Assembly (NCBI GenBank): GCA_019261985.1
Contig: JAFAQY010000121.1
Location: 1-64,000, forward strand
Reading direction: 5' to 3'
Source: Bryobacterales bacterium
GTDB taxonomy: Bacteria > Acidobacteriota > Terriglobia > Bryobacterales > Bryobacteraceae
Length of the DNA stretch: 64,000 nucleotides
Below the pieces are notes generated by a model. The model did no database searches, was not told the DNA's origin, and saw only the letters and a list, made by a program, of their open reading frames with translations. Both the position numbers and the translations under genes were made by a program. This document shows positions 43,496-45,550 of the stretch, in pieces (within the stretch, counting starts at the first letter, position 1; each line of letters opens with the position of its first letter).

Positions 43496-43845
43496 GCCGC
43501 GGCGCCGGCTCGCCGGGCCGATCAACGCCGTGTTACGCCGCTAGATGAATGAAGATATCCCGCCTAGCCGGCGCCGGCACCCAACCAGACCAGCGCGATG
43601 AAGGGCGGTGCACCCCTTGGGTGAGACAAACAGTCAAGAGACAGTTGACCGTTCGCTGCTTTTCCGTTGAGCGGGCGAACGGGTTAATCCATAATGAGCC
43701 TACCGGCATCGGAAGCGATAGAGCTCTGCTGGGATGCAACTCGAGCGACCGGTGCCGCGGCCGGGGCGGCAGCCAGACTGCCGCCCCACGCACGCGAAAG
43801 CAAAATGCCCCATTCTGGCGGAAAAAAGCGGAAAAATCCCGGGGG

Positions 43846-43866
43846 CTTGGGGGCGGAGCCCCCAAG
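43846..43866. terminator. strong hairpin downstream of the IS3 transposase
   Basis: CTTGGGGGC GGA GCCCCCAAG: a perfect nine-base stem with a three-base loop, 36 bases beyond the transposase stop inside the element. No U-run follows on the minus strand, so it is either an atypical terminator or a structure with another role. A second small hairpin (GGCGGCAG...CTGCCGCC) lies further toward the left end. Confidence 0.5.
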
Positions 43867-43901
43867 TAACGAGACGCGAAGCCGCCGCAAGACCACCTGG
43901 C

Positions 43902-45077
43902 TCATGCATGCACCTCGGGTTGCCGTTCGAAGCTGGCCGGTGGTTGGTAACCCAACGCGGAATGAAGGCGCTGCCGATTGTAGACGGTTTCCAGGAAGCG
44001 ACCGATTTGCGAACGGACGTCCTCCAGATCGCGATATTCCGAACGGTAGACCTCTTCGGACTTCAGCGTTTTCATGAAAGCTTCGGCTCGGGCATTGTCC
44101 CAGGGCGTGCCGCGCCGGCTCATGCTGATGGAGATGCCGCGCGCCTCCAGCAAACTCGTGTAGTCGTGCGAGGCGTACTGCATCCCTTGATCGGAATGAT
44201 GGACTAGTCCGCGCCGTATGCGGCGACAGCTTAACGCCATGCGCAAAGCGGCCACGGCCAGTTCCGCTTGCCAGGTGCGATCTAAAGCCCACCCGATCAC
44301 GCGACGCGAGTGGGCGTCCAAAATCACCGCCAAATACATGAACTCCCAACGCAGCCGCACGTACGTGAGATCCGCCACCCAGAGCTGATCGATTCCGCTG
44401 AGCGTCATCTCCCGCGCCAAGTTCGGATACACGGCCAAGCTGTGTCTGGAATCGGTGGTCAGAACGAATTTCCGCCGCCGCACGCACAACAGATTGTCCT
44501 GGCGCATCATCCGCAACACCCGCTTGTGGTTCACCGCGTGCCCTTGCCGCCGCAGCTCCGCGGCGATGCGCCGGTAGCCGTAAACCGGATGCGCCAGAGC
44601 GATCTTGTGGATCAGATCGCGTGTTTCCATGTCCGTGGCCCGGGGATCGCTCCTTCGCCGAAAGCGGTAAAACCCCGCCCGGCTCACGCGCGCCCATTCG
44701 CATAACCCATCGGTGGGCAGCATGGGCGCTTTCATCGCTTCCTCGATTTGCGGCGTAGAGCGTATCGCGCCATTTGCGCCTTCCCGCCGGCGTTGTTCCT
44801 CGAAGCACCGCAAGGCTTTTTTTAAAAAATCGTTCTCCATGGTGAGTTGGCCGATTTTGCGTTCCAACTCCGCCTCCCGGCTGTCGGCGACGATCGCCTT
44901 GCCCATGCCCGGGAAAGCCGCTGTCGGATTGGCCCGATACTCCTGCCGCCAGCGGTGTAGCGCGTTCGGGCTGACCTCCAGGTCGCGGGCAACTCTTCCT
45001 ACCGGCTGTCCGGATTCCAGCAGCCGGATGGCCGAAAGTTTGAACTCACGCGTAAAGCTTCTTCGAGACAATTCCAT
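43902..45077 (-). CDS. IS3-family transposase, OrfA and OrfB in one frame
   Basis: A 391-residue protein. The N-terminal helix-turn-helix (SFTREFKLSAIRLLESG, DLEVSPNALHRWRQEY) and coiled coil (REAELERKIGQLTMENDFLKK, broken here at LTMENDFLKK) equal OrfA; the rest equals OrfB. The DDE residues are in WVADLTYVRL, VHHSDQGMQYAS and PWDNARAEAFMKTLKSE. Most IS3 elements join these halves by a -1 frameshift on an A-rich slippery run. Here a T6A7G run on the minus strand (+ strand 44817-44829) sits at the junction, but the frame is continuous. A +1 shift there would stop after about 28 codons, the length of a normal OrfA end. Confidence 0.93.
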   Translation of the reverse strand: MELSRRSFTREFKLSAIRLLESGQPVGRVARDLEVSPNALHRWRQEYRANPTAAFPGMGKAIVADSREAELERKIGQLTMENDFLKKALRCFEEQRRREGANGAIRSTPQIEEAMKAPMLPTDGLCEWARVSRAGFYRFRRRSDPRATDMETRDLIHKIALAHPVYGYRRIAAELRRQGHAVNHKRVLRMMRQDNLLCVRRRKFVLTTDSRHSLAVYPNLAREMTLSGIDQLWVADLTYVRLRWEFMYLAVILDAHSRRVIGWALDRTWQAELAVAALRMALSCRRIRRGLVHHSDQGMQYASHDYTSLLEARGISISMSRRGTPWDNARAEAFMKTLKSEEVYRSEYRDLEDVRSQIGRFLETVYNRQRLHSALGYQPPASFERQPEVHA

Positions 45078-45147
45078 CGCTCCTTACTCCATTGAATGAA
45101 ATTTGTCTGTTGACTGCGTGTCTCACTTTTGGCGTGCACTCCAAAGA

Positions 45148-45499
45148 GTGGGGCAACTTGCCAAGCTGCGGCGGGATGCCAACCCGCGTCGGCGTTGGCA
45201 TACAAGCAGACCAGCGCGATTAGCAATCGCGCGCAGGATGGCATCCCGGATGGCGTCCTGCCCCACGGCAAGAGTGGGGCAGCTTGCCAAGCTGCGGCGG
45301 GTTACCCGGCCGGCCCGCGCTGGCACGCAAGCAGACCAGCGCGATTAACAATCGCCCGCAGGATGGCATCCTGCCCCGCAGGAAGAGTGCCAGCTTGCCA
45401 AGCTGCGGCGGGTTGCCATGCCAACCCGCCCGGCCGGCGCTGGCACGCGAGCAGACCAGCGCGATTAGCAATCGCGCGCACGATGACATCCTGCCCCAC
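45148..45499 (+). repeat. three tandem copies of the family-1 palindromic repeat
   Basis: Units at 45148-45266, 45274-45378 and 45387-45499, each opening with GTGGGGCA or GTGCCA and closing with CCTGCCCCAC or near it. Each contains the palindromes GCAGCTTGCCAAGCTGC-like, GGCGGGTT...AACCCGCC-like and GCGCGATTAGCAATCGCGC-like. Short spacers of 7-8 bases separate them. This is the only tandem array of the family in the window, and lies directly beside the IS3 element. Confidence 0.9.
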
Positions 45500-45550
45500 T
45501 GGCCGGCGCTACACTACACTCAAATAGCCCAGGCGCAATTACCCTCGCGC

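What the first reader, a model, noticed from the sequence alone, without database searches (positions are those of the whole stretch)
43902..45077. IS3 transposase in which OrfA and OrfB are fused at the slippery run
At + strand 44817-44829 (minus T6A7G) the coding frame runs straight from the helix-turn-helix half into the DDE half. If the run were one base shorter, the first frame would meet a TGA 27 codons later and the DDE half would be in -1: the normal IS3 arrangement. So a one-base expansion of the run seems to have joined the frames. That would make fused transposase without frameshifting and perhaps leave OrfA to be made by slippage.
Basis: partly seen in the sequence, partly recalled or inferred. 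Interest (0 to 1): 0.55.

Follow-up and report, generated by a model that had tools for sequence, protein, structure and literature searches.

The report
Solitary IS3 copy with displaced frame
This is an ordinary jumping gene of the IS3 family in an Acidobacterium: its two overlapping reading frames have been joined by a net gain of one base near the end of the first frame, not at the slippery run, so it looks like a mutated copy; the more unusual part is a folded non-coding tail related to one found behind several unrelated jumping genes.

Summary
In detail: one 391-codon frame runs through T6A7 at 44817-44829, and dropping one base there would meet a TGA 27 codons on. The reading does not hold. 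In 33 of 36 distinct relatives OrfB is in -1 relative to OrfA; five of those 33 carry A7 in the same phase, and 20 of the 36 have no A run of five or more. From the run to about 44752 the window still resembles OrfA in frame 0 and OrfB in frame -1; only after about 44747-44754 does OrfB lie in frame 0. A frame-switch scan gives 86.9 bits there, 45.4 at the run, 43.6 for the fused frame. So a net +1 in the overlap, about 70 nt past a slippery site of normal phase, fused the frames. A -1 slip now leads into a 381-codon frame that leaves OrfB; it does not make OrfA. Best explanation: a decaying (or mis-sequenced) single-copy IS3. Beyond the finding: the ~300-nt tail of this IS is a divergent variant of a structured module; the better-preserved form covaries at 32 of 34 pairs and lies beside IS3, IS21 or ISNCY transposase genes in 65 of 92 loci examined, with no Rfam match.

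The parts
43604..45143 (-). IS3-family element, about 1540 bp
   Evidence: Terminal inverted repeats, 29 of 40 positions equal; longer match; flanked by a 3-bp repeat CTT
45104..45143 (-). left terminal inverted repeat, begins 5'-TGGAGTGCAC
   Evidence: same opening in relatives such as L011, L125, L126
43604..43643 (+). right terminal inverted repeat; tip reads GGCG where relatives read TGGAG
45144..45146 (.). possible target duplication CTT (minus strand), left
   Evidence: 3 bp only, weak
43601..43603 (.). possible target duplication CTT (minus strand), right
   Evidence: 3 bp only, weak
43902..45077 (-). single open frame joining OrfA and OrfB, 391 aa
44817..44829 (-). T6A7 run (G at 44816) holding two overlapping slippery heptamers, T_TTT_TTA and A_AAA_AAA, in the normal phase
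44747..44754 (-). place where the OrfB homology passes from frame -1 to frame 0 (net +1 relative to relatives)
   Evidence: frame-switch scan: 86.0, 86.9 and 85.4 bits at 44754, 44751, 44748
44732..44734 (-). TGA, the likely former OrfA stop, now out of frame
   Evidence: OrfA tails of relatives end at about this distance
43690..43872 (-). non-coding tail: variant (type A) of a conserved structured module between the transposase stop and the right repeat
   Evidence: alignment A5 with six relatives, 39 pairs, 12 with changes on both sides; its 3' hairpin (43721-43742) matches model R1 at 9.0 bits, E 0.0025

Best explanation
A single-copy IS3-family element whose ancestor had the usual two overlapping frames with -1 frameshifting at the T6A7 run. 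A net +1 change (one base gained, or two lost) at about 44747-44754, just before the OrfA stop, moved the rest of OrfB into the OrfA frame and put the OrfA stop out of frame. The result is a long open frame whose DNA-binding and catalytic halves are intact, but whose joint of about 22 residues is the OrfA tail and not the start of OrfB. Shown by sequence: the single frame, the normal phase of the run, the displaced place of the frame change. Inferred: that it is a mutation in a decaying copy (more likely) or a base error in the assembly (less likely), and that the fused protein is not a selected, working arrangement.
For: 33 of 36 distinct relatives have OrfB in -1; the other three (L017, L115, L108) are interrupted or displaced, so none of the 36 is an uninterrupted fusion. 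Linker test on 32 distinct -1 relatives (L016 left out, no DF motif found): frame -1 of the window against OrfB starts, mean 41.0, against 17.8 +/- 1.6 (maximum 23.0) for 200 shuffles; frame 0 against OrfA tails, mean 26.4, against 15.8 +/- 1.2 (maximum 21.3). Frame-switch scan with a profile of 26 of those 32 (six divergent ones dropped): peak 86.9 bits at 44751, 45.4 at the run, 43.6 for the fused frame, 31.3 for all -1. Frame breaks are common in such copies: L014, L016, L097, L115, L108, L017 carry others. The window's right repeat tip departs from that of relatives.
Against: No relative nearer than about 60-70% identity in OrfB was found, so the ancestral bases are inferred and the exact base and type of change (+1 or -2) are not known. 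The catalytic half is free of stops and keeps D, D and E, so the copy is young, selected, or broken only in the assembly. Of the 32 tails, 4 did not fit frame 0 best and 5 starts did not fit -1 best. No reads were available.
Confidence: 0.88

Rival explanations
1. One reading: the A run grew by one base and joined the frames there.
For: Arithmetic: removing one base from the run opens the way to the TGA 27 codons on. The same fusion has been engineered in IS2 by changing A6G to A7G (PMC3219604, passages).
Against: A7 in the same phase stands in five two-frame relatives, and the run phase is the same in relatives without an A run. The 70 nt after the run are in normal register for both proteins; a switch at the run scores 41 bits less than one at 44751.
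Confidence: 0.03
2. Assembly or sequencing error: the living organism has the normal two-frame IS, and one base too many was called near 44747-44754.
For: Metagenome-like draft of 138 contigs, single copy, no second copy to compare; intact domains either side.
Against: The site is not a long homopolymer (GCCGCAAATCG). No reads to test it.
Confidence: 0.25
3. A working constitutive OrfAB: the fusion is functional, makes transposase without frameshifting and no OrfA.
For: One open frame with both domains; engineered frame-fused OrfAB of IS2 is made as the main product (PMC3219604, passages).
Against: The joint is read in the wrong frame for OrfB, unlike the engineered fusion; single copy in the genome; none of 36 relatives has it; right repeat tip altered.
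Confidence: 0.1

Closest known systems
IS3 family with -1 programmed frameshifting (review PMC5009743, passages and part 1 of 2 of section 11)
   Same: HTH half and DDE half in an overlap with a slippery run; terminal repeats; NF033516 match far above cut-off
   Different: this copy has both halves in one frame because of a net +1 downstream of the run
Engineered frame-fused IS2 OrfAB, A6G to A7G (PMC3219604, passages)
   Same: one frame for OrfAB
   Different: engineered at the run, so the joint is the true OrfB start; here the change is ~70 nt later and the joint is the OrfA tail
Slippery motifs of IS1 and IS3 elements (PMC4066793, passages and section 18)
   Same: X_XXZ_ZZN heptamer in the overlap
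   Different: there 72% of heptamers are A_AAA_AAG or A_AAA_AAA; among the 33 two-frame relatives here 24 have T_TTT_TTN and 11 have A_AAA_AAN, plus 2 with A_AAG_GGN
IS110/IS1111 seekRNA and IS200/IS605 end structures (PMC11187229 and PMC6006769, search listings only), for the structured tail
   Same: a structured non-coding part inside or at the end of an IS
   Different: here the same module lies beside DDE transposase genes of three families, in either orientation; no guide function is shown

Membership tests
IS3 family | transposase of the IS3 type | tested here: met
   NF033516 361.7 bits, cut-off 160; rve, rve_3, HTH_21, HTH_Tnp_1
IS3 family | D-D-35-E catalytic residues | tested here: met
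   D236, D296, E332; 35 residues between the last two (identification by motif, recalled)
IS3 family | two overlapping frames, OrfB in -1 (usual, not universal) | tested here: not met
   one frame in this copy; -1 in 33 of 36 distinct relatives
IS3 family | imperfect terminal inverted repeats ending TG...CA | tested here: inconclusive
   29 of 40 positions; left end TG, right tip GG instead; the exact right end is uncertain
IS3 family | short target duplication | tested here: inconclusive
   3-bp CTT on both sides; 1 in 64 by chance at a fixed boundary
programmed -1 frameshift site | slippery heptamer in the right phase | tested here: met
   T_TTT_TTA and A_AAA_AAA both in phase
programmed -1 frameshift site | -1 frame leads into OrfB | tested here: not met
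   only to ~44750; then the -1 frame leaves OrfB and stays open to 43684
programmed -1 frameshift site | stimulatory RNA structure downstream | tested here: inconclusive
   90 nt after the T run: z = 0.2 in the window; -3.1 to 1.1 in the 23 relatives printed, L073 alone below -2

The most novel reading that the evidence does not exclude
Beyond the finding itself: the tail of this IS (43690-43872) is a diverged relative of a structured RNA or single-strand DNA module that different IS families (IS3, IS21, ISNCY) share in Acidobacteria, mostly Bryobacteraceae. It stands within tens of bases of the transposase stop, in either orientation according to the IS group, and takes part in the life of the element (for example as a hairpin recognised in single-stranded DNA, as a non-coding RNA, or as an insulating 3' end). 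Existence of the folded module is well supported; the tie between the window's type A and the modelled type B rests on the shared 3' hairpin; function is not shown.
Probability: 0.4. Interest if true: 0.7.

Novelty: new member of a known kind. Interest (0 to 1): 0.3.

Why it matters
The fusion itself matters little: it shows how a frame break can imitate a biological fusion, and that OrfA and OrfB register should be checked on both sides of a slippery run before the run is blamed. What may matter is met on the way: a covarying, 130-200-nt module beside the transposase genes of three IS families in one bacterial phylum. If it serves transposition or its control, it would be a part that unrelated IS share, and a tractable one.

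Tried and rejected
Tried: read-level check (not possible); a second copy in the same genome (none); near relatives (63 loci in genome contigs; 61, 200, 396 and 237 genomes, the last three listing only matches at or below 1e-60, 1e-60 and 1e-108): nothing close enough to fix the ancestral base. RNA stimulator after the run: no support. Rfam on the element: no match at E up to 1. Model R1 on the window: only the 3' hairpin, 9.0 bits, so I do not claim the window's tail is type B. tRNA in the window: none. No structure prediction was run, since a model would not tell a working joint from a broken one. Rejected: fusion at the run; a whole lineage of fused elements (none of 36); slippage as source of OrfA in the -1 direction.

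Literature: searches (IS3 frameshifting, fused frames, Bryobacter; structured element beside transposases). I read passages of PMC5009743, PMC3219604, PMC4066793, PMC3196728 and PMC1088944, section 11 part 1 of PMC5009743 and section 18 of PMC4066793; all else was seen in listings only. I did not find the module described in those listings; that is no proof that it is unpublished.

Full report
What is there. The minus-strand frame 43902-45077 (391 aa) is real and uninterrupted. It is an IS3-family transposase (NF033516, 361.7 bits against a cut-off of 160; HTH_Tnp_1, HTH_21, rve, rve_3). The element runs from about 43604 to 45143 by its terminal repeats (29 of 40 positions), with CTT on both sides. 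It is the only copy found in its genome. The host genome (6.49 Mb, 138 contigs) belongs to a family that I take to be Bryobacteraceae, since contigs of named records coincide in length and place with contigs of same-family genomes (L011 and G107:C343; L007 and G182:C173); some submitters' names in that set differ.

The run. T6A7 lies at 44829-44817, G at 44816.

What relatives show. I compared the halves in all loci where both were found close together and OrfB was at least 44% identical. Of 36 distinct relatives, 33 have OrfB in -1; two are in frame 0 but hold stops (L017 three, L115 one) and one is in +1 (L108). So none of the 36 is an open fusion. Five of the 33 two-frame relatives have A7 in the same phase as the window (L006, L008, L009, L010, L013), others have A6 or less, and 20 of the 36 have no run of five or more A. 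The run length is thus not what sets one frame or two.

Where the frames were joined. I read the 22 codons after the run in three frames and compared them with the OrfA tails and OrfB starts of 32 distinct -1 relatives (L016 left out). OrfA tails fit frame 0 best in 28 of 32 (mean 26.4; shuffles 15.8 +/- 1.2, maximum 21.3). OrfB starts fit frame -1 best in 27 of 32 (mean 41.0; shuffles 17.8 +/- 1.6, maximum 23.0). So both proteins are in normal register there: a frame -1 reading gives SLAVLRGTTPAGRRKWRDTLYA, the familiar OrfB start, and frame 0 gives ALRCFEEQRRREGANGAIRSTP, the familiar OrfA tail. A profile of 26 OrfB starts (six divergent of the 32 dropped) was then used to score every switch from -1 to 0: 86.0, 86.9 and 85.4 bits at 44754, 44751, 44748; 45.4 at the run; 43.6 with no switch; 31.3 all in -1. 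The change is therefore a net +1 at about 44747-44754, a few codons before the old OrfA stop. One base gained or two lost cannot be told apart, nor the exact base, since the nearest relatives are only about 60-70% identical in OrfB.

What follows for expression. Frame 0 gives a 391-aa protein with both domains but the OrfA tail as joint. A -1 slip at the run, for which the heptamers T_TTT_TTA and A_AAA_AAA are in phase, enters a frame open for 381 codons to 43684 that matches OrfB only to ~44750. A +1 realignment would end at the TGA with 27 residues unlike any OrfA tail. So the slippage that serves a normal IS3 no longer yields its product, and OrfA is no longer made by plain translation. I hold a decaying copy most likely: other relatives carry other frame breaks (L014, L016, L097 within OrfB; L115, L108, L017), the right tip is altered, and the copy is alone. 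A base error in the draft is possible and could not be tested. A working fusion is possible but less likely.

A side result on slippery sites. Among the 33 two-frame relatives 24 have T_TTT_TTN, 11 have A_AAA_AAN and 2 have A_AAG_GGN (5 have a T and another heptamer; 1, L014, has neither). A survey of IS1 and IS3 elements found 72% of heptamers to be A_AAA_AAG or A_AAA_AAA (PMC4066793, section 18). So in this group the T run may be the older slip site. That is inference from conservation; no frameshifting was measured, and a downstream stimulator was not supported.

The tail. Between the stop at 43902 and the right repeat lie about 300 nt. Parts are 71-80% identical in other acidobacterial IS3. 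Looking at tails of 45 loci I saw two kinds. Type B (12 distinct in A1) has a long hairpin, then a short hairpin CGGGTTGC..GCAGAGCCCG. In the plain MAFFT alignment RNAalifold already finds 22 pairs, 6 with changes on both sides; four of the 12 were folded alone, z = -3.4, -2.8, -2.0, -4.2. A covariance model from six (R1) matches in 129 of 237 genomes of the family and in 13 of 386 drawn from the phylum, three of these in the window's genus. On 103 distinct aligned matches 90.6% of cells pair, 32 of 34 pairs show changes on both sides, 354 such cells against 96.5 in shuffles (0 of 500 as high) and at most 76 when slid. This alignment was fitted to the structure and holds some weak second-strand matches, so the figures lean towards it; the unfitted one search points the same way.

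Where the module lies. I classed 92 of the 110 matches (18 dropped: 11 weak second matches, 7 repeats of a place or at contig edges). The loci were the top matches plus picks down the list, not a random draw. Same-strand IS3 upstream: 26; IS21 IstB upstream: 10; ISNCY upstream: 11; IS3 on the other strand: 18; no transposase of these kinds recognised: 23; no room: 4. So 65 of 92 lie beside one of three families. Names: IstB_IS21 for L155, L157, L154, ISNCY for L163, in the window's own genome (NF033594, 359.2 bits, cut-off 250), IS3 for L213 (164.3 bits, cut-off 160). Gaps between stop and module are 7-12 nt in many same-strand cases and 11, 20, 25, 26 nt in four of the other-strand cases; in others they are larger. 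Some copies stand beside ordinary genes (for example L210, L191), which fits decayed IS or free copies. The inverted cases argue against a plain sense-strand 3' end as the only role.

The window's own tail is type A. Aligned with six relatives it gives 39 pairs, 12 with changes on both sides, but the window lacks part of the central pairing partner and model R1 finds only its 3' hairpin (9.0 bits, E 0.0025 for 601 bases, filters off). Folding the tail alone gives z = -2.7. In L077, L078 and L079, and partly L090, the second half appears inverted. No Rfam family matches the window stretch or the module in ten loci (where the only hits were a tRNA and one below its gathering score).

Verdict. 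The finding is a sound observation with a mislocated cause; on its own I would score it about 0.15. The overall 0.3 reflects the structured tail that belongs to the same element.

Noticed in passing
window 43690-43872 (-), and L133-L232 (model R1): Structured non-coding module behind or beside IS3, IS21 and ISNCY transposase genes in Acidobacteria; 129 of 237 family genomes, covariation at 32 of 34 pairs, no Rfam match. The window holds a divergent variant.
   Followed up: partly
window 44824-44829 and relatives: In 24 of 33 two-frame relatives the slippery heptamer is T_TTT_TTN; only 11 have A_AAA_AAN.
   Followed up: partly
window 45147-45500 and 43559-43602: Units of about 110-125 bp repeated beside the IS, with a shorter copy across it; a 24-base core with up to two mismatches occurs 28 times in the genome, control 0. 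The IS may have landed in such an array.
   Followed up: partly
L077, L078, L079, L090: In these more distant IS3 elements the second half of the type A tail is inverted relative to the first.
   Followed up: no
L014, L016, L097, L108, L115, L017: Other relatives carry their own frame breaks or stops, a sign that decayed IS3 copies are common here.
   Followed up: partly
G000:C130:26845-27042 (L163): A type B module in the window's own genome directly behind an ISNCY-family transposase.
   Followed up: partly
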